From Candidatus Gastranaerophilales bacterium (GTDB taxonomy: Bacteria; Cyanobacteriota; Vampirovibrionia; Gastranaerophilales; Gastranaerophilaceae): a DNA stretch of 64,000 bases. The translations under genes and the position numbers were made by a program. Shown piece after piece: positions 7,877 through 22,356 of this stretch. Where the stretch lies: NCBI GenBank assembly GCA_910586855.1, contig CAJUJH010000003.1:124001-188000 (forward strand). Direction: 5' to 3'. How positions within the stretch are numbered: the first letter of the stretch is position 1; each line of letters opens with the position of its first letter. The notes below the pieces were generated by a model. The model had not been told where the DNA came from and did not search any database. It saw only the letters and a list, made by a program, of their open reading frames with translations.

Positions 7877-7958
7877 AGTGCAAATTTTATGTTACAAATT
7901 TGCATAAAGGATTTTTAAAAAATATAATAGAAATACAGATTTATAAAAGGATAATAAA

Positions 7959-9197
7959 GTGTACAAAGACAAGGTTCTTACAATGATACTTGCAGGCGGA
8001 CAAGGAAAAAGACTCTTCCCTTTAACCCGCGATAGAGCAAAACCCGCTGTTCCTTTTGGCGGCAGATATCGTATCATAGATTTTGTTCTAAATAATTTTG
8101 TAAATTCAGGTTTTTATAAAATAAAAGTATTAACCCAATATAAATCAGACTCCTTAAATAAACATATATCAAGGGGTTGGAACCTTTCAGCTTCGGTTGG
8201 TCAATATGTTGACTGTGTACCAGCGCAAATGAGAACAGACGGCAACTGGTACAAAGGTACGGCAGATGCTATATATCAAAATATTAACCAGATAACAGAC
8301 GGTAATTATGGTAATATTTGCGTCTTTGGAGGCGACCATATCTATAAAATGGATGTCCGCCAAATGCTTGATTACCATAATAAAAAAGAAGCCGACCTTA
8401 CAATCGCTGCAATTCCTATCCCGATTGAACTTGCAAGCGAATACGGCATAATCGAGGTAAATGAAAACTGGCAGTTAACAGGTTTTATCGAAAAACCAAA
8501 AACAGCACCCAAACATATCCCCGGTGTACCAAATATGTGCCTTGCTTCAATGGGAAATTACATTTTTAAATCAGGAATTTTAATTGATGAAGTCTGCAAA
8601 GATTCAAAAGATGAAAATTCTGCCCACGATTTTGGCAAAAACATAATCCCTAATATGCTCTATTCCGGTAAAAAAGTATTCATCTACGATTTTGCAAAAA
8701 ATGAATTTCCGGGAATGACTCCCTCTGAAAAAGGCTACTGGAGAGATGTAGGAAATGTCGACAGTTATTTTCAGGCCAATATGGATTTATTAGACTATGA
8801 CCCTGAATTAAATCTTTATTCAAAAGATTGGCCTTTGCGTACATTTAACTACAATTTCCCTCCCGCAAAATTTATCTGGGATGAAGATAAAAGGGTGGGC
8901 GTTGCTAAAAACTCACTTGTATCTGAAGGATGTATTATATCAGGCGGTTCGCTTTCAGGATGTGTTTTATCACCAAAAGTGCATATCAACAGTTTTTGTA
9001 ATATTTCAAATTCAATCTTGCTTGAAAACGTTAAAGTAGGACGTCATTCAAGAATTAACCGCGCAATCATTGATAAAAACGTAGCAATCCCGCCATATAC
9101 AGAAATCGGATTTAATAGAGAAGAAGACCTTAAACGCGGATTCTTTGTTTCAGAAGGCGGCATTACCGTTGTTCCAAAAGATGCAATAGTGGATTAA
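7959..9197 (+). CDS. glgC: Glucose-1-phosphate adenylyltransferase (ADP-glucose pyrophosphorylase)
   Basis: A 412-residue enzyme making ADP-glucose from ATP and glucose-1-phosphate, the committed step of glycogen synthesis. It shows the nucleotide-binding [38 protein letters not shown] and I-E-K-P-K. A C-terminal left-handed beta-helix regulatory domain begins near residue 290 (S-E-G-C-I-I-S-G-G). The start is GTG 7959, supported by AAAGG 8 nt upstream. No other glycogen gene is in the window. Confidence 0.96.
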
Positions 9198-9631: not shown

Positions 9632-12600
9632 TTAATCTAGTGTCGTACTCTTATATTCAAGAATTACAAAACCGTTTCCGCCTTTGCCGCCGTTTCCTCC
9701 CGTATTATTAAGTACGGCACCACCACCTCCGCCTCCTCCAAATACCCCGTTATTTCCGCTTGCAGAAACTCCTGTATTTGTAATATTGCATATTTCTTCA
9801 TATAAAGGAGATAATATACTGCTTCCGCCACAGCCTGGTCTAATGGGACCGGCTGAATTATTTGTACTATCATTTGCTTTAGCGCTTGCAGCACAGGCAA
9901 TATTACCATCTTTGTCTTTGGTTTTTAATAAGCAGGCAAGATATCCGCCCATGCCACCATAATCGCTGCTGCCTTCCTGTCCCATCACGATATTCATATT
10001 TGATTGCACATATTCTTTATAAAGATTTGAATACCCATTTGGAAGCAGCTTTTTCTCTGCATGGACTCCCGTATCCATTGTGCCATTGTTTCCTTTAATT
10101 CCACCTTTTGCTGTACCCCTTATAGTTTTTCCTCCTGAAATTACGCTGATACTTGTAGTTCCGCCATTTCCATTCTCCCCGATTGTGGATTCTTCAAATA
10201 AATCAGAATCTTCATCATTTTGGGTTTTTAAAACACCGCCGCCTCTGCCAATTCTTATTTTCATAACCCTTTTGCTTGTATCGCCTTCAAGGTTACTTAC
10301 CGTCATCTGTGTAAATTCACCCACGGTACCTCCTCCGCCATTTGAACCGCCCCATTCAATGTATATATAGCCATTAGCGCCTTTACCACCACGACCCGAA
10401 CCAGAACCAAGTACAGTTACGCCTCCTCCGCCGCCTCCGCCTGCACCATAACTATTTGAAGCAGCATCCATTCCATCAGAGTGCACACCGCCGCCAACTC
10501 CGCCTTGTAGTACTGAGCCTTTTAAATCATATGATATACCGCCATTTCCGCCACCAGCACCATTCGACACGATATTTCCTTGACTACCGTTGCCACCTCC
10601 GGTGCCAAAATCAATATTGGTCCAATTATTGTATCTTGCACTACTGCTAAAATTTGTCGTTTTTATGCCACCGCCATAACCGCCGCTATTTTGTATATAT
10701 GTATCATCATTTTCATATTTTCCACCCTTTCCGCCTGATACAGAATATACATTACCTCCAACCGTAATTGAGGTTGCAGTACCGTCATTACCATTCACAT
10801 TATAGACATCTTGTGTTGTTTTATTACCACCAACGCCAATATTCATATTTATTACTTGTCCTGGGGTAACATCTATTTCCCCTATCCAGATTTGTCCGGC
10901 ACCGCCTCCACCGCCAGAATTTGCCTGAACATAGTAATCACATTTTAAACCGTTTGATACAGCAGGGACGTTGTACCATACTTTAATCGCACCTGGCCTA
11001 GCAGGGTCACCAGATACACAGTTTGAATCATTAAATATTCTACTAGCCTCTCCACCTAGTCCACAGCCGCCTCCGCCGCCCTGTGCCCACCCGCAGCCAT
11101 TACTTCCGCCATAGCCTCCGCCGCCTCCGCCGCCGCCAGTTCCTCCTCCGCCAATAACAGAATAACTATTTCCCTCAGTTCCATTTGCACTTCCTTTTCC
11201 ACCGACACCATTTCCACCGCCATACCTGCCACCTGTTCCTGGGGTACCATACGTACCACCTGTTGCGCCAATACCTCCACTGCCTTGATTCCAGCTGCCT
11301 CCGCCAGCACCACCATACCCGCCCCCAGTTATATTACCAAATCCTGCATTTGGACCTCCGCCAATGGCTCCACTTCCGCCTGCACCACCATATGCACCAC
11401 CGCCTGCGCCCCCACCGCCACCTGCGCTATATCCGTTTCCTTCACAACCACTGCCCTGTGTTCCGCTGCCGCCCCCACCACCAACTTGAAATATTATTTT
11501 ACCGCTTGTATTTGCAGCACCAGTCAATATTGTGGTTGCACCACCGCCACCTCCACCGCCACCGGTACCTATGTATTTGCCACCCCCTGCACTCTTGCCG
11601 CCTGCGCCACCATTATTATAATTATAACTCGCACTGCTGCTTCCTCCATTTCCACCCCTGATTGTTGATACACTCTCACTGCCACTTGCATTGCCTCCAC
11701 TATTAGCATTACCGCCGCCAAGAAAGCTGTTGCCACCGGCACCCCCTGGAACAACCGCACCAGCTCCGCCGTAATTGTTATTAATACTACCGCTGGTTTT
11801 AGAACCACTTTTTCCACCTTCACCAACTGCTAAATATATATTAGAAGCAGCAGTTGTGGTATTTAGTGCTTGATTTTCAACATAGCTTCCCGTTCCACCA
11901 GGCATACTATTATAACCTCTGCCACCTCCTGCTCCACATGCAGTCACTTTTGTAAGTGTGACATTTGTTTTTCCATTTCCGCCAACTTTCTTAAAAACTG
12001 TATTTGGCGCAATCTTTGTATCGCTGTCTGATACCATAGTCCATTGATTTATAACACCCGTATTTTTACAGGTAGATGGAAATTCAGGAGCCTTATAATT
12101 ACTTGGCGGGGTTATCTTATCCGCAAACACATATGCTCCCGCCTCTGTTATACTGCCATCAGCACCATTTAATGCAGGTATATCAGCATAACTTGTTTTT
12201 ATGCTACCTCCACCTGACGCCCCTCCACCTCCGGCACCCACCATAAATACCCTCAATTTAGTAACATTTTGAGGCACAGTCCAACTTTGAGAAGACGTAA
12301 ATGTTTTGTTTTCATAATAAGCATCTCCGCCTGCTCCGCCGCCGCCCATCATTGTAATTCTTACCTGGTTTGCATCTATAGGTATGTTAAAATTTGTATC
12401 AGTTGTAAAAACTGAAAAAACAGTATTTTTGTCATAATCTGCTGCTTGGCTCATTACTTTTATATCTGCTTCATTCATCCTCTTTGTCATAACAGGGGCA
12501 AGCGCTGCTAAAAGCAGCGATGCTACCAATAATGCCATAAGCATTTCGACAAGGGAAAAAGCAAAGGATTTTCGGATGGGTAATGCCCATATGGGCAGTT

Positions 12601-12703
12601 TAAGTTTCTTTACATTTAGTTTATAATTAGAAAAACCTGAAATTTTAGACATAAAAGCCTTAGGGCTAAGGAAAGCCCTTGAAACGATGAACAAATTTAA
12701 CAT
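9632..12703 (-). CDS. Very large glycine-rich protein with a prepilin-type N-terminus
   Basis: A 1023-residue protein. Residues 46-75 hold a class III (type IV prepilin) signal, A-F-S-L-V-E-M-L-M-A-L-L-V. Predicted cleavage is A48/F49, Glu53 is at mature +5, and a hydrophobic helix ends in M-T-K-R-M. The rest, from about residue 115, is Gly-rich beta sequence with many G-G-G-G runs and paired motifs such as W-T-V-P-Q-N-V-T-K-L-R-V, which resembles glycine-rich domains of surface proteins. It is therefore probably processed by a PilD-like peptidase and assembled or displayed through a type IV pilus/T2SS-like machinery. It is far larger than ordinary pilins. The start with AAAGG upstream gives a 48-residue leader; ATG 12652 would shorten it to 31. 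Confidence 0.75.
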   Translation of the reverse strand: MLNLFIVSRAFLSPKAFMSKISGFSNYKLNVKKLKLPIWALPIRKSFAFSLVEMLMALLVASLLLAALAPVMTKRMNEADIKVMSQAADYDKNTVFSVFTTDTNFNIPIDANQVRITMMGGGGAGGDAYYENKTFTSSQSWTVPQNVTKLRVFMVGAGGGGASGGGSIKTSYADIPALNGADGSITEAGAYVFADKITPPSNYKAPEFPSTCKNTGVINQWTMVSDSDTKIAPNTVFKKVGGNGKTNVTLTKVTACGAGGGRGYNSMPGGTGSYVENQALNTTTAASNIYLAVGEGGKSGSKTSGSINNNYGGAGAVVPGGAGGNSFLGGGNANSGGNASGSESVSTIRGGNGGSSSASYNYNNGGAGGKSAGGGKYIGTGGGGGGGGATTILTGAANTSGKIIFQVGGGGGSGTQGSGCEGNGYSAGGGGGAGGGAYGGAGGSGAIGGGPNAGFGNITGGGYGGAGGGSWNQGSGGIGATGGTYGTPGTGGRYGGGNGVGGKGSANGTEGNSYSVIGGGGTGGGGGGGGYGGSNGCGWAQGGGGGCGLGGEASRIFNDSNCVSGDPARPGAIKVWYNVPAVSNGLKCDYYVQANSGGGGGAGQIWIGEIDVTPGQVINMNIGVGGNKTTQDVYNVNGNDGTATSITVGGNVYSVSGGKGGKYENDDTYIQNSGGYGGGIKTTNFSSSARYNNWTNIDFGTGGGNGSQGNIVSNGAGGGNGGISYDLKGSVLQGGVGGGVHSDGMDAASNSYGAGGGGGGGVTVLGSGSGRGGKGANGYIYIEWGGSNGGGGTVGEFTQMTVSNLEGDTSKRVMKIRIGRGGGVLKTQNDEDSDLFEESTIGENGNGGTTSISVISGGKTIRGTAKGGIKGNNGTMDTGVHAEKKLLPNGYSNLYKEYVQSNMNIVMGQEGSSDYGGMGGYLACLLKTKDKDGNIACAASAKANDSTNNSAGPIRPGCGGSSILSPLYEEICNITNTGVSASGNNGVFGGGGGGGAVLNNTGGNGGKGGNGFVILEYKSTTLD

Positions 12704-18416: not shown

Positions 18417-18728
18417 CTCATAACAAGGATTTTACCGTTAGAATAATTTTATAACGCTATGTTTATAATTTGCAAAAATAAAAACACACCCTTATCATAA
18501 AATTAGACACCCCCAGAGTACTTTAGTTTAAGGATTAAGGTAGAGAGGGTTTTTCAAATCGTCGGTAAGGCCGCTGAGTCAATATTTTAGCGGTTCATAT
18601 TTATGTAAAATACACATAAATAACCGTTTAACAGAGTTTATGCCGTTAAACCAAAGTACTTACCTAATTTTAGACACAGCGTACGTTGATATCTCAAATA
18701 TTCATTCAAAGCAGGCTATTTTATTACA
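18417..18728. other. Non-coding flank of the cassette array with inverted repeats
   Basis: No convincing gene. AGTACTTTAGTTTAA (18517-18531) is repeated inverted, with one mismatch, at 18646-18660. Between them a hairpin has TATTTATGT (18598-18606) and ACATAAATA (18614-18622), with outer CGGTT/ACCG extensions. The word TTAGACAC occurs at both ends of this block. The arrangement could mark the array boundary, a recombination site or an RNA structure. Confidence 0.4.
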
Positions 18729-19004
18729 CAGCTCTGCGACAGGGACTCAAGCTCCTCTTATGGCGCTGCACGATGTTATTACTTGCATGGCGGCTGCCAG
18801 GGCGCAGCTACAGGTAACAACGAAGCTAACCACTGCTACCCGTACGATTTATGGTCAGGCTCAGAGGTTGAAGGCAGCTCTTACCACAGAGGTTATGGGC
18901 TTTACAATGGTTATCTGCATTATGATTCCAATTTCTGCGGCACAGGTATGTATGCTAAGTGTGTTTCTGGTTATGCTTTCGCTGTGCGCTGTGTCCTGGG
19001 TTTG
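18729..19004 (+). other. Cassette 1 (intact, 276 bp)
   Basis: Opens Q-L-C-D-R-D-S-S-S-S-Y-G-A-A-R-C and contains G-G-C-Q-G-A-A-T-G and C-Y-P-Y-D-L-W-S-G-S. It ends A-V-R-C-V-L-G-L. Seven Cys. The frame continues from upstream without a start codon. Confidence 0.7.
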
Positions 19005-19042
19005 AGCTCTATTTTTTGTTGCTTCAGCTTACAGCAGGTTTA

Positions 19043-19270
19043 CAGCTGTGCGACAAGTATGAGAGCTCTAAGTACGGCGCTGTACAGTGCAAAGTTTTGT
19101 ATGGCAGCTGTCAGGGCACTTCGGATAACCACTGCATCCCGCATCACGTTTGGTCAAGTTCTTCCGGTAACAGTTGTTACTGGTATCGCTGGCTTGACTC
19201 CGGTCAGTTCGGTATTAACAATTGCAATCCAATAGGTGCAGCTCACTCTGTGCGCTGTGTCCTGGGTTTG
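19043..19270 (+). other. Cassette 2 (intact, 228 bp)
   Basis: Opens Q-L-C-D-K-Y-E-S-S-K-Y-G-A-V-Q-C. The variable part W-S-S-S-S-G-N-S-C-Y-W-Y-R-W-L-D-S-G is nearly repeated in cassette 3. Ends S-V-R-C-V-L-G-L-K and reads on to a stop at 19307-19309. Confidence 0.7.
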
Positions 19271-19309
19271 AAGAGCATAAAACCATGCAAAACACAGCAG
19301 ACAGTTTAA

Positions 19310-19717
19310 GAGCTCTGCGACAGCCAGCCCAGTGTTTCTTACGGCGCTGTACAGTATGCGTAAGCCGGTGCTAAATTTACCAATGTGCGAGCATTGGTAA
19401 AAAGAAGCATTTGCGTGGCGAGGCCCTGCCGTATGAAAGGCGACTATACGTCACGTTTTGTGGGAGGGAGATGTTGAGCAAAATTTGTGACAACGTTAGT
19501 GAAAACAAATTTTTGCGAAACACCCGCAGGAAGCTGTTATCCATTGGTTGGCGGCTGCCAGGGCGCTTACAACAGCAACTGCTACCCGCACCACGTTTGG
19601 TCAAGCTCCTCGGATAACAACTGTTATTGGTATCGCTGGCTTGATTCAGGCGAATTTGGTATTAACGAATGCCGACCGGCTACTGGCACTCACTCTGTGC
19701 GCTGTGTCCTGGGTTTG
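19310..19717 (+). pseudogene. Cassette 3, split by an insertion of about 180 bp
   Basis: The first part (E-L-C-D-S-Q-P-S-V-S-Y-G-A-V-Q) breaks at 19355, inside the Cys codon that normally follows. Cassette homology resumes at 19535 (C-Y-P-L-V-G-G-C-Q-G-A). The insert (about 19356-19534) contains a perfect 8-bp stem-loop, TACCAATG/CATTGGTA, at 19378-19399. No recognisable gene lies in it. Confidence 0.6.
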
Positions 19718-19775
19718 AAGAGTATAAATACCACATCAAAATGTTTAATGGTAAACACAGCAATATTACCGTAAA

Positions 19776-20000
19776 AGCCCTACATTTGGTGCTGTAAAAT
19801 GCGGTAGTTATGGCGGCTGCCAGGGTTCAGCATATAACAACTGCTACCCGGACCACTTATGGTCAAGCGTTTTGAGAGCAAGCGGCTACTACACGGCTAT
19901 ACGTTTGCTAGGTGGTGCATTTTCTTCTGCTTCAGTATGCGACGGCACAGGTAAGTGTATTAGCACCTACGCCTTTGGTGTGCGCTGTGTCCTGGATTTG
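19776..20000 (+). other. Cassette 4 (5' end diverged, about 225 bp)
   Basis: Lacks the Q-L-C-D opening; homology begins S-P-T-F-G-A-V-K-C and continues Y-G-G-C-Q-G-S to G-V-R-C-V-L-D-L. It is in the same frame as cassette 5, so the two read through. Confidence 0.6.
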
Positions 20001-20021
20001 ATATCCAGAGAGTACGGTTTG

Positions 20022-20282
20022 CAGCTCTGCGAGCGGTATGAGAGTTCTTCTTATGGCGCAGCACGGTGTTGGGAGTACTATGGCGGCTGCCAGGGCGCAG
20101 CTAATAGTATATCTGCAAACGCTAACAACTGCTACCCGAACGACTTATGGTCAAGCACCCCGGCTGGCTCAGAGTATCGTGCACTGGACTTAGTGGGAGG
20201 CATCTTTCGTCCGTATGGTCCTTGCGGTACTGGTTATTGTCCAAGCTCATTAGCCTTTTCTGCGCGCTGTGTCCTGGTTTTG
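20022..20282 (+). other. Cassette 5 (intact, 261 bp)
   Basis: Q-L-C-E-R-Y-E-S-S-S-Y-G-A-A-R-C opens it; A-N-N-C-Y-P-N-D-L-W-S-S in the middle; S-A-R-C-V-L-V-L at the end. Confidence 0.7.
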
Positions 20283-20304
20283 ATATCTGCAGACCACCGG
20301 TTTA

Positions 20305-20613
20305 CAGCTCTGTGACTGGGATAATAGCTCTAAGTACGGCGCTGCACAGTGCTACAGACTTGCTGGCGGCTGCCAGGGAGCTGCTACAGGTAACTCAGAT
20401 GCTAACAACTGTTTCCCATCCGCTAGGTGGTCAGGTACAAAGGTAAGCAGTACCGAGTATTATGACTATGCACTTAACTACGGCAATCTTAGTATGGAGA
20501 TAAGACGGGCTGTTTACGCCTTTTCTGTGCGCTGTTCGCTCCTTGCCATATTAGGCATAGGGTGAAGTCTCACCCTATTACCCTAGGCTGTAATACGCTG
20601 TGTCATGGATTTG
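20305..20613 (+). pseudogene. Cassette 6, 3' end interrupted by a 66-bp insert
   Basis: Intact from Q-L-C-D-W-D-N-S-S-K-Y-G-A-A to F-S-V-R-C, then the frame enters an insert. Removing the 66 bp (20536-20601) restores V-R-C-V-M-D-L and a 243-bp unit. CGCTGT directly repeats at 20530-20535 and 20596-20601. Confidence 0.65.
20536..20601. mobile_element. 66-bp palindromic insertion in cassette 6
   Basis: Flanked by the direct repeat CGCTGT (20530-20535, 20596-20601). It contains a perfect 9-bp stem, ATAGGGTGA/TCACCCTAT (20557-20578), with a 4-base loop. Size and structure suit a tiny MITE- or REP-like insertion. Confidence 0.45.
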
Positions 20614-20661
20614 TTTTAGAATTACAAAATTAGAATAAATTCAGGCTACAAATACTTGAAG

Positions 20662-20913
20662 AAATTCTGCAACAGAGGGTTAAGTTCTTCATACGGCGCT
20701 GCACAGTGTGCAAGCAGTAGACACGGTTGTCAGGGTGTTGGTGATGGCAGCTGCTGGCCAAACCATCTGTGGACTGGTACATATATTACTACTGGCATTT
20801 ACAGAGGTTTTGCCTTAAGCGGTGTCGATGGTCTTACGTCTGTTATAGCTTGCGACGGCACAGGCAGGTGTGACGCCACTATCCCTTTTTCTGTGCGCTG
20901 TGTCCTGGATTTG
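20662..20913 (+). other. Cassette 7 (intact, divergent 5' end, 252 bp)
   Basis: Opens K-F-C-N-R-G-L-S-S-S-Y-G-A-A-Q-C, the most divergent start. It has C-W-P-N-H-L-W-T-G-T, C-D-G-T-G-R-C and F-S-V-R-C-V-L-D-L. Confidence 0.7.
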
Positions 20914-20974
20914 TTTTATGTTTTGCTAGAAATTCAAAACTACTGCAAATTAACAGAATGCTGACTACTGTTTG

Positions 20975-21202
20975 CAGCTATGCGAGCAATATGAGAGTTC
21001 TAAGTACGGTGCAGTGCAGTGTAACTGGGTGGGCAGCAGCTGCCAGGGCGCTTACAATAACACCTGCTACCCGTCTGCCAGATGGTCAGGCACAAAGGCA
21101 AGCAGTACCGAGTATTATGACTACGCACTTAACTACGGCAATCTTGGTATGGAGATAAGGCTGCCTACTTATGCCTTTTCTGTGCGCTGTGTCCTGGTTT
21201 TG
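20975..21202 (+). other. Cassette 8 (intact, 228 bp)
   Basis: Q-L-C-E-Q-Y-E-S-S-K-Y-G-A-V-Q-C. Shares the middle tract S-S-T-E-Y-Y-D-Y-A-L-N-Y-G-N-L with cassette 6, although their first thirds differ. Confidence 0.7.
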
Positions 21203-21224
21203 ATATCTGCAGACCGTCGGTTTG

Positions 21225-21476
21225 CAGCTCTGCGACAGAGATGCGAGTTCTTCTTACGGCGCCGCTCAGTGCCACTGGGTTCACAGCTGTCAGGGCGCAA
21301 CTCAAGGCTATGGTGAGGCTGATTACTGTTATCCCTACATTTTATGGTCCAGCAGACGGGTAAGCAATCTTAAGGCTTGGTCGCCGGAGCTGCTTGGAGG
21401 CAGCTTTTTTGAGAACTACGGGGATGCAGGGCACCCGGTTACGCAGGCCATATCTGTGCGCTGTGTCCTGGATTTG
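21225..21476 (+). other. Cassette 9 (intact, 252 bp)
   Basis: Q-L-C-D-R-D-A-S-S-S-Y-G-A-A-Q-C to I-S-V-R-C-V-L-D-L. Its 3' end begins the 95-bp segment repeated at 21734. Confidence 0.7.
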
Positions 21477-21547
21477 ATACCTTTTAGGGTACAGACAATC
21501 AGCTCTGCGACAGAGAGTTAAGCTCTTCTTACGGTGCTGCACGGTGC
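21453..21547 (+). repeat. 95-bp exact direct repeat, copy 1
   Basis: Identical to 21734-21828, offset 281 bp. It spans the end of cassette 9, the 23-bp spacer and the start of cassette 10, matching the cassette 10/11 junction. Confidence 0.9.
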
Positions 21548-21757
21548 TACTACTTGGCTGGCGGCTGCCAGGGCGCAGCTTTGAATACTAATTGGGCTAA
21601 CAAATGCTACCCGTACCACTTATGGTCAGGTACACCAAGCGGAGCAGAGTATTGGTCGCCGAACCTGAATGCCGGTTCTATTAATCTTACCGGTGCTTGC
21701 GGTACTGGTCACTGCCCTGTTTCACTCACATTTTCTGTGCGCTGTGTCCTGGATTTG
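21500..21757 (+). other. Cassette 10 (intact, 258 bp)
   Basis: Q-L-C-D-R-E-L-S-S-S-Y-G-A-A-R-C, C-Y-P-Y-H-L-W-S-G-T, C-G-T-G-H-C, F-S-V-R-C-V-L-D-L. This is the closest to the consensus. Confidence 0.7.
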
Positions 21758-21828
21758 ATACCTTTTAGGGTACAGACAATCAGCTCTGCGACAGAGAGTT
21801 AAGCTCTTCTTACGGTGCTGCACGGTGC
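21734..21828 (+). repeat. 95-bp exact direct repeat, copy 2
   Basis: Second copy of 21453-21547, spanning the cassette 10/11 junction. Exact identity indicates recent duplication or gene conversion. Confidence 0.9.
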
Positions 21829-22056
21829 CTCAACCTGAGCGGCGGCTGCCAGGGCGCAGTTTCCGGTACCCCTTGGGCAGACCATTGCTACCCGTTTTAT
21901 ATATGGTCCGGCTCCGAGCTTGGTACTTCTTTGTATCACCAGGTTTATGAGGTAAGTTCCGGTTCTTTACGTTATGTATCAGGTACTTGCGGGAATGACG
22001 CTTATGGTAAGTGTATTAACAGCTGGGCACTTTCTGTGCGCTGTGTCCTGGATTTG
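21781..22056 (+). other. Cassette 11 (intact, 276 bp)
   Basis: The first 48 bp are identical to cassette 10. The variable part Y-Q-V-Y-E ... G-K-C resembles cassette 12. It is in frame with cassette 12 across a 36-bp spacer. Confidence 0.7.
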
Positions 22057-22092
22057 AATTTCGTTTCTGCAAATTCAAAATACAGACGATTG

Positions 22093-22356
22093 CAGCTCTG
22101 CGATGCAGGTGCAAGTTCCTCTTACGGTGCTGCACGGTGCGATGCGCTTATTAGCGGCTGCCAAGGCTCGAGTAACCCTAACTGTCACCCGTTTTTTGTA
22201 TGGTCAGGTTCAAAGGTTAGCGAGTCAGTTTATCAGGTGTATGAGCTAGGCTCCGGTGCTTGGCGTTATACATCAGATACTTGCGGCAGCGGAGCTTATG
22301 GCAAGTGCGGCAGTGTGTGGGCAAGTTCTGTGCGCTGTGTCCTGGATTTGAAGTAA
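22093..22356 (+). other. Cassette 12 (intact, terminal, with stop codon)
   Basis: Q-L-C-D-A-G-A-S-S-S-Y-G-A-A-R-C to S-V-R-C-V-L-D-L-K, then TAA at 22354-22356. It is probably the form in which the full-length gene ends. Confidence 0.7.

What the first reader, a model, noticed from the sequence alone, without database searches (positions are those of the whole stretch)
18729..22356. Twelve-unit silent cassette array encoding variable Cys-rich C-terminal domains
Twelve start-less units share 5' (Q-L-C-D) and 3' (S-V-R-C-V-L-D-L) blocks and internal Cys landmarks while the segments between differ strongly in sequence and length. Each unit is a whole number of codons, but the units are not collectively in frame, so they cannot be one tandem-repeat protein. 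This is what a donor library for gene conversion into an expressed copy looks like (compare pilS in Neisseria or vls in Borrelia). None of the known systems is in this lineage, and no expressed copy or RNA-templated mutator is in the window.
Basis: partly seen in the sequence, partly recalled or inferred. Interest (0 to 1): 0.93.

Follow-up and report, generated by a model that had tools for sequence, protein, structure and literature searches.

The report
Twelve-cassette template library behind RNA leader
This stretch of DNA, likely from a gut bacterium, holds twelve start-less gene cassettes behind a predicted structured RNA element; in close relatives exact pieces of such cassettes lie inside one full-length gene for a predicted surface protein beside a reverse transcriptase gene, so the cassettes are likely ready-made templates that this enzyme would copy to switch the protein, instead of mutating it at random.

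Summary
The array is real: 12 cassettes, 973 codons counted, 0 stops in the coding frame against 21 and 57 in the other two. It is a donor library and looks like an expanded template locus of a diversity-generating retroelement (DGR). A covariance model built only from the RNA element beside template repeats in sister genomes finds one significant place in the window, 18482-18605, 123 bp before cassette 1 (E 1.3e-9), and 16 distinct places before arrays in the two genomes held of the related genus. There, a full-length prepilin-like gene carries the cassette domain, next to a DGR-type reverse transcriptase (RT) and Avd. Its cassette domain is an exact mosaic in G002 (37+64+59 bp from three contigs; cassette-cassette maximum 30); in G096 187 bp, 46 adenines included, are exact. 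Sister G116 keeps one A-rich template with 20 of 21 mismatches at adenines. So random adenine mutagenesis seems to have been replaced by a library of pre-made templates. Shown: arrays, RNA covariation, donor tracts, RT/Avd beside the full-length gene in relatives. Inferred: that RT does the copying, and that the window's own genome holds RT and full-length gene (neither is in the window).

The parts
18482..18605 (+). predicted template-RNA leader: conserved structured element, head of the array
   Evidence: covariance model R1, built without this sequence or any from its genus: 44.4 bits, E 1.3e-9, next best in window E 0.58; fresh alignment of 17 array leaders incl. this one: 10 of 13 pairs with double compensatory changes; no Rfam match
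18673..18680 (-). inverted copy of the cassette 3' core (GACACAGC) at the 5' boundary of the array; only copy on the + strand of the window
18729..19004 (+). cassette 1
19043..19270 (+). cassette 2
19311..19355 (+). cassette 3, 5' piece
19356..19525 (+). element inside cassette 3, related (79% over 96 bp) to sequence just 5' of the first cassette in G001 array C4; shorter matches at C133 and C17
   Evidence: folding z -2.2
19526..19717 (+). cassette 3, 3' piece
19779..20000 (+). cassette 4 (5' block lost)
20022..20282 (+). cassette 5
20305..20544 (+). cassette 6 (3' end altered)
20662..20913 (+). cassette 7
20975..21202 (+). cassette 8
21225..21476 (+). cassette 9
21500..21757 (+). cassette 10
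21781..22056 (+). cassette 11
22093..22356 (+). cassette 12, ends in a stop

Best explanation
The array is a library of twelve start-less cassettes headed by a predicted structured RNA element that in sister genomes sits beside the template repeat of a diversity-generating retroelement, and it likely works as one multi-template RNA from which a reverse transcriptase with Avd, predicted to be encoded elsewhere in the genome, would copy cassette segments into the lectin-like domain of one prepilin-like gene. Shown in relatives: the full-length gene, the RT and Avd genes beside it, RNA elements before the arrays, and exact donor tracts. Inferred: that RT rather than DNA recombination does the copying, that it does so largely without the adenine mutagenesis of ordinary DGRs, that the gene is expressed, and that the window's own genome holds the RT and the gene. 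In evolutionary terms a single A-rich template repeat seems to have been multiplied into many pre-diversified templates, so variation comes from choosing and mixing templates.
Against: Adenines in the donor tract are not mutated (0 of 46 in G096 against 20 of 60 in G116, Fisher 2e-6; counting both flanking A-to-T changes 2 of 48, 2e-4), which plain RecA gene conversion predicts without a changed RT; the RT motifs look unchanged (the 19 RTs extracted from 20 loci read GLPIGNLTSQ and YVDD). No RT, Avd or full-length gene is in the window and its genome is not held. In G001/G002 the two halves of the gene are on different contigs; the join is inferred. P0045 and P0049 run from the constant region through a cassette into array spacer: chimeric assembly, or a crossover that RT copying would not give. 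The genes next to the RT in G096 and G116 carry a 1-nt shift at the end of the variable region. L104 (G002 C45) has an array with 942 bp of upstream sequence and no RNA match. The window's cassette flanks do not resemble sister template flanks. Identity alone does not tell which way copies went. That the RNA binds RT/Avd is untested.
Confidence: 0.68

Rival explanations
1. Same library, but ordinary homologous recombination (RecA type) copies DNA cassettes into the full-length gene, as at pilE/pilS or vlsE; RT, Avd and the RNA are relics of the ancestral DGR or serve something else.
For: Donor tracts are faithful at adenines and mosaic; arrays are spread over many contigs; variation by gene conversion is established for vlsE and pilE (abstract starts of PMC11499132 and PMC3547852).
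Against: RT and Avd-like genes stand beside the full-length gene in the three cassette-bearing genomes and are under purifying selection between G001 and G002; the RNA element is kept before dispersed arrays with compensatory changes, which DNA recombination does not need.
Confidence: 0.22
2. An ordinary adenine-mutating DGR works from a template repeat not found here; the cassettes are an archive of past variable regions.
For: Codon make-up of cassettes is VR-like: AAY medians 0.06 window, 0.04 G096, 0.03 G002, 0.125 G001, against 0.07 in the G116 VR and 0.26 in its TR.
Against: No TR found by blastn within the 10 kb (G002) or 3.9 kb (G001) held around the RT; no cassette pair in the four cassette sets has A-specific mismatches (top A share 0.36-0.61; G116 and G253 TR-VR pairs 0.95 and 1.0); target copies match silent cassettes exactly instead of differing at A.
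Confidence: 0.06
3. Decaying duplicates of a variable domain without function.
For: Units 3, 4 and 6 are damaged.
Against: 0 stops in 973 codons, RNA element conserved by compensatory change, exact tracts in full-length genes.
Confidence: 0.04

Closest known systems
Diversity-generating retroelements (BPP-1, Treponema TvpA type)
   Same: RT with GLPIGNLTSQ/YVDD, bAvd-like protein, lectin-like variable domain, template repeat with an RNA element beside it in sisters, shared 3' block at the template/target boundary
   Different: No single A-rich template found; 12 to over 100 A-poorer cassettes in dispersed arrays; transferred tracts faithful at adenines; mosaic of several templates in G002
Silent-cassette antigenic variation (pilE/pilS of Neisseria, vlsE/vls of Borrelia)
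   Same: One full-length gene, many start-less partial copies, segmental exact donor tracts, prepilin-like target as in pilE
   Different: Arrays headed by a DGR-type RNA element; RT and Avd beside the full-length gene; known systems act on DNA by recombination (recalled; abstract starts)
DGRs with several templates or targets (PMC6642488, passages seen)
   Same: More than one TR is on record there (e.g. 6 unique TRs and 91 TR-VR pairs in Pseudomonas costantinii); 271 of 948 DGRs have multiple VRs
   Different: No silent cassette library for one target site is described in the passages seen

Membership tests
Diversity-generating retroelement | DGR-type reverse transcriptase | tested here: met
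   in relatives only: RVT_1 over cut-off, one match each in G001 and G002, motif GLPIGNLTSQ, YVDD; that this motif marks DGR RTs is recalled. Not in the window
Diversity-generating retroelement | Avd accessory protein | tested here: met
   in relatives only: PF22296 bAvd 51.4 and 46.3 bits, cut-off 40; NF033474 below its own cut-off (49.2 and 44.4 of 80)
Diversity-generating retroelement | template repeat near-identical to the variable region with mismatches at adenines | tested here: not met
   met in sisters G116 and G253; in cassette genomes no A-specific pair and exact tracts
Diversity-generating retroelement | RNA element shared with template loci of sister DGRs | tested here: met
   window E 1.3e-9, covariation; that the element is part of the template RNA is inferred from position
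Diversity-generating retroelement | variable domain of C-type-lectin fold | tested here: met
Diversity-generating retroelement | transfer through RNA, RecA-independent | not testable with these tools
   needs experiment
pilS/vls-type gene conversion | full-length copy plus silent partial copies | tested here: met
   in relatives; in the window only the partial copies
pilS/vls-type gene conversion | segmental donor tracts in the full-length copy | tested here: met
pilS/vls-type gene conversion | depends on RecA-type recombination, no RT | not testable with these tools

The most novel reading that the evidence does not exclude
A DGR that has given up random adenine mutagenesis for a template library: RT and Avd copy, and switch between, dozens to over a hundred pre-made cassette templates carried on many multi-template RNAs, an RNA-templated antigenic-variation system.
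Probability: 0.62. Interest if true: 0.95.

Novelty: new variant of a known kind. Interest (0 to 1): 0.92.

Why it matters
It would join two ways of making protein variants that are treated as separate: silent-cassette switching and reverse-transcriptase mutagenesis. It suggests an evolutionary path in living genomes (single template, adjacent array in G096, dispersed arrays in G001 and G002), a recognisable RNA element without an Rfam 15 match in the window, and an assay: does a DGR-type RT move cassettes faithfully? It would also explain how an uncultured lineage diversifies a prepilin-like surface protein with a lectin-like domain.

Tried and rejected
Own-genome search: none held. Genome scan with the six-cassette alignment: 7 stretches, none confirmed; the GrpE scan gave the relatives. 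Viral scan: one hit, L001, a phage contig whose match lies in an unrelated, terminase-like ORF (by eye): false positive. Pfam on four cassettes: nothing above cut-off. Rfam: nothing. Group II intron remnant in unit 3: considered by eye, no Rfam support, and the stretch turned out to be array-leader sequence. Template repeat beside the RT of G001/G002: not found. Adenine-type diversification among cassettes: TR-adenine sites do diverge more at codon positions 1 and 2, but no pair is A-specific, so this is no proof of descent from mutagenesis. G024, which I first noted as a canonical DGR (12 of 16 mismatches at A), was dropped on checking: those adenines are on the strand opposite to the coding sense. 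Structure from the G002 cassette protein: too poor to use. PDB sequence search: no hit at E 1. The RT tree does not unite G096 with G001/G002 (two changes of the cassette label, forced by well-supported branches, with long branches present), so arrays arose twice or were lost elsewhere. Papers (listings only unless said): 'diversity-generating retroelement'+'silent cassettes' 1 review; 'Gastranaerophilales'+'diversity-generating' 0; with 'template repeat' and 'gene conversion' 1; 'multiple template' 0; 10 of 36 listed, none of the 10 names Melainabacteria; 5 listed; 8 of 1,100 listed, none names Melainabacteria; PMC8144416 searched for six terms, 0 hits. Only open-licence papers are held and long lists were seen in part, so absence from print is not shown.
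Full report
OBSERVATION. The 3' core GCTGTGTC occurs 12 times on the + strand of the window, all within the array. Translating each unit in its own frame gives 973 codons without a stop (the damaged 5' part of unit 3 left out); the other two frames hold 21 and 57. Invariant residues across 12 units include three Cys, Gln-Gly and the final Arg-Cys. Unit 3 is split by another element, unit 4 lacks its 5' block and unit 6 has an altered 3' end. The array lies between a nucleoside transporter gene and the grpE and dnaJ genes (transporter; grpE named by its hits; dnaJ by eye).

LINEAGE. The window's own genome is not held. Its GrpE is 76% identical to an unnamed MAG (L002 = G001) and 69% to a Candidatus Melainabacteria MAG (L003 = G002; mouse gut by its iMGMC name, recalled); these two are the only genomes held of their genus. 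In G001 two cassettes sit at the very same place, upstream of grpE.

RELATIVES HAVE ARRAYS AND A FULL-LENGTH GENE. With the window cassettes as profile, G001 has 31 and G002 112 matches, G003 none. A protein search found 42 relatives of the last two units, mostly cassettes on metagenome contigs. The full-length gene starts with a prepilin-type segment, continues Gly-rich, then a constant half-domain (..RLPTQ..), then the cassette domain. In both genomes the contig ends in or just after the cassette, and the Gly-rich C-terminal half begins another contig. On that contig, convergent with it, lie an Avd gene and the genome's only RVT_1 match. No expression data were seen; 'expressed' is inferred from the architecture.

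DONOR TRACTS. In G002 one contig end (C26) is a mosaic of exact runs of 37, 64 and 59 bp from silent cassettes on C80, C95 and C35; the other (C118) has 56 exact bp of a C47 cassette; they share 36 bp of 3' constant sequence, so the sample holds at least two forms of the site, if both ends are the same locus. Among 117 distinct G002 cassettes the best exact run to another is 21 bp at the median and 30 at most. In G001 the 5' half (54 bp) and the 3' half (37 bp) both fit the same cassette, C158, with 123 bp between; here 37 bp is within the cassette-cassette maximum of 38, and the 5' run stops at the contig end, as an assembly overlap would. In G096, on one contig, 187 bp are exact against a cassette-cassette maximum of 53; the next best cassette is 75% identical. 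Two substitutions (both donor A to T) and one deletion flank the G096 tract; the second substitution and the deletion could be the resident 3' block. One donor-A-to-C difference flanks the G002 C118 tract. These three are at donor adenines, which hints at residual mutagenesis but is too few to claim. Across metagenomes, P0045 equals the G001 protein over 328 of 328 constant residues but carries another G001 silent cassette (one residue different over 98), and P0040 and P0049 agree in 79 of 80 constant residues with different window-type cassettes; P0045 and P0049 run on into array spacer, so chimeric assembly is not excluded.

THE DGR LINK. RT relatives occur in 65 of 383 family genomes. Sisters G116 and G253 have a canonical template: 20 of 21 and 9 of 9 mismatches at template adenines. 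G039 has a template-like unit but only 21 of 54 mismatches at A, and G024 does not fit in strand (see Tried and rejected). In the self-comparison no template pair was seen in L182-L186, partial loci of other sisters. Template and target in G116 share sequence up to CGCTGTGTCCTGG and then part, about the same boundary as between cassettes and full-length genes. Seven sister template-like units, chosen at AAY 0.20 or more among 15 sister hits, lie at 0.20-0.27; cassettes are far lower.

THE RNA ELEMENT. Sister template loci carry a conserved element upstream of, and in some also downstream of, the template. Alignment A6 (7 sequences, none from the window's genus): 23 pairs, 11 with both sides changed and the pair kept. 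Model R1 from it finds window 18482-18605 (E 1.3e-9; the next match 0.58) and, in 34 loci, 20 matches: 3 in G096 and 17 in G001/G002 (L002 and L087 are the same place, so 16; E from 8e-9 to 6e-4, and the tool calls its E-values rough), none in the 10 loci without arrays. Of 11 G001 array loci 9 have it; the other two start with the array at the contig edge. Of 11 G002 array loci fetched (a twelfth contig, C63, with one match was not) 6 have it; in four of the other five the array's 5' end is within 280 bp of a contig edge, one (L104) is a true exception. Aligned afresh without the training sequences, 17 leaders give the same main hairpin with 10 of 13 pairs showing double changes; these 17 were, however, chosen by the model, and the smaller 3' hairpins did not reappear. 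In whole genomes 10 of 383 have the RNA under strict filters, 9 of them with the RT; G255 has the RNA without an RT match, G192 an RT without the RNA.

G096 AS LINK. One contig holds an Avd-like gene (named by similarity), RT, the full-length gene and, divergent upstream of it, 30 distinct cassettes; G116 and G039 have their template at that place. The G096 array starts with the RNA element (L197:7051), has another inside, and ends with the sisters' downstream element (82% over 92 bp with G204) and terminator. Its cassette flanks resemble the two G116 template flanks more than shuffles do (12.2 against 9.1, SD 1.9; 11.1 against 7.7, SD 1.7); two further references were, by my script, flanks of the downstream unit and show little (8.9 against 7.8; 8.8 against 8.1); window flanks show no excess with the G116 ones (6.8 against 7.1; 6.9 against 6.6).

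MECHANISM. I read the window array as a template-RNA gene with twelve templates. RT with Avd would copy a cassette, or several by template switching, into the target domain; the shared 3' block would play the part that IMH plays in BPP-1 (passages of PMC3240598). What speaks against RT is the faithfulness at adenines; what speaks against plain recombination is the selected RT, Avd and RNA. The step is inferred and testable.

Noticed in passing
window 9632-12703 (-): A 1023-aa prepilin-like Gly-rich protein (FSLVEMLMALLVASLLLAALAPVMTK, Gly_rich_2) resembling the full-length gene's product, but without the cassette domain.
   Followed up: partly
window 18673-18680: An inverted copy of the cassette 3' core (GACACAGC) marks the 5' boundary of the array; similar copies near the starts of G001 arrays L002, L109 and L106. 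Purpose unknown.
   Followed up: partly
window 19356-19525; L110, L109, L107: A second, hairpin-prone element between RNA element and first cassette in three G001 arrays, inside cassette 3 in the window: perhaps the join of two arrays (folding z -3.8, -1.5 and -2.2 for L109, L107 and window).
   Followed up: partly
L197:5610-6830 and L179:5250-6470: The genes next to the RT in G096 and G116 share a 1-nt shift at the end of the variable region, which separates them from the Gly-rich frame: off state, programmed frameshift or real C-terminus.
   Followed up: no
G116, G039, G024, G177, G280, G330: Sister genomes have 11 to 38 matches each to the variable domain, many in long open frames and some several times in one frame, so one template may serve many targets (list cut).
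   Followed up: no
L189 (G116:C19), L119 (G039:C1): A second template-like unit with RNA element away from the RT.
   Followed up: no
P0045, P0049: Proteins that run from the constant region through a cassette into array spacer and stop: chimeric contigs or a truncated form.
   Followed up: partly
L181:5818-6030 and 7957-8169 (G024): Repeat pair with 12 of 16 mismatches at A, but on the strand opposite to the coding sense of the variable protein: an antisense template or chance.
   Followed up: no
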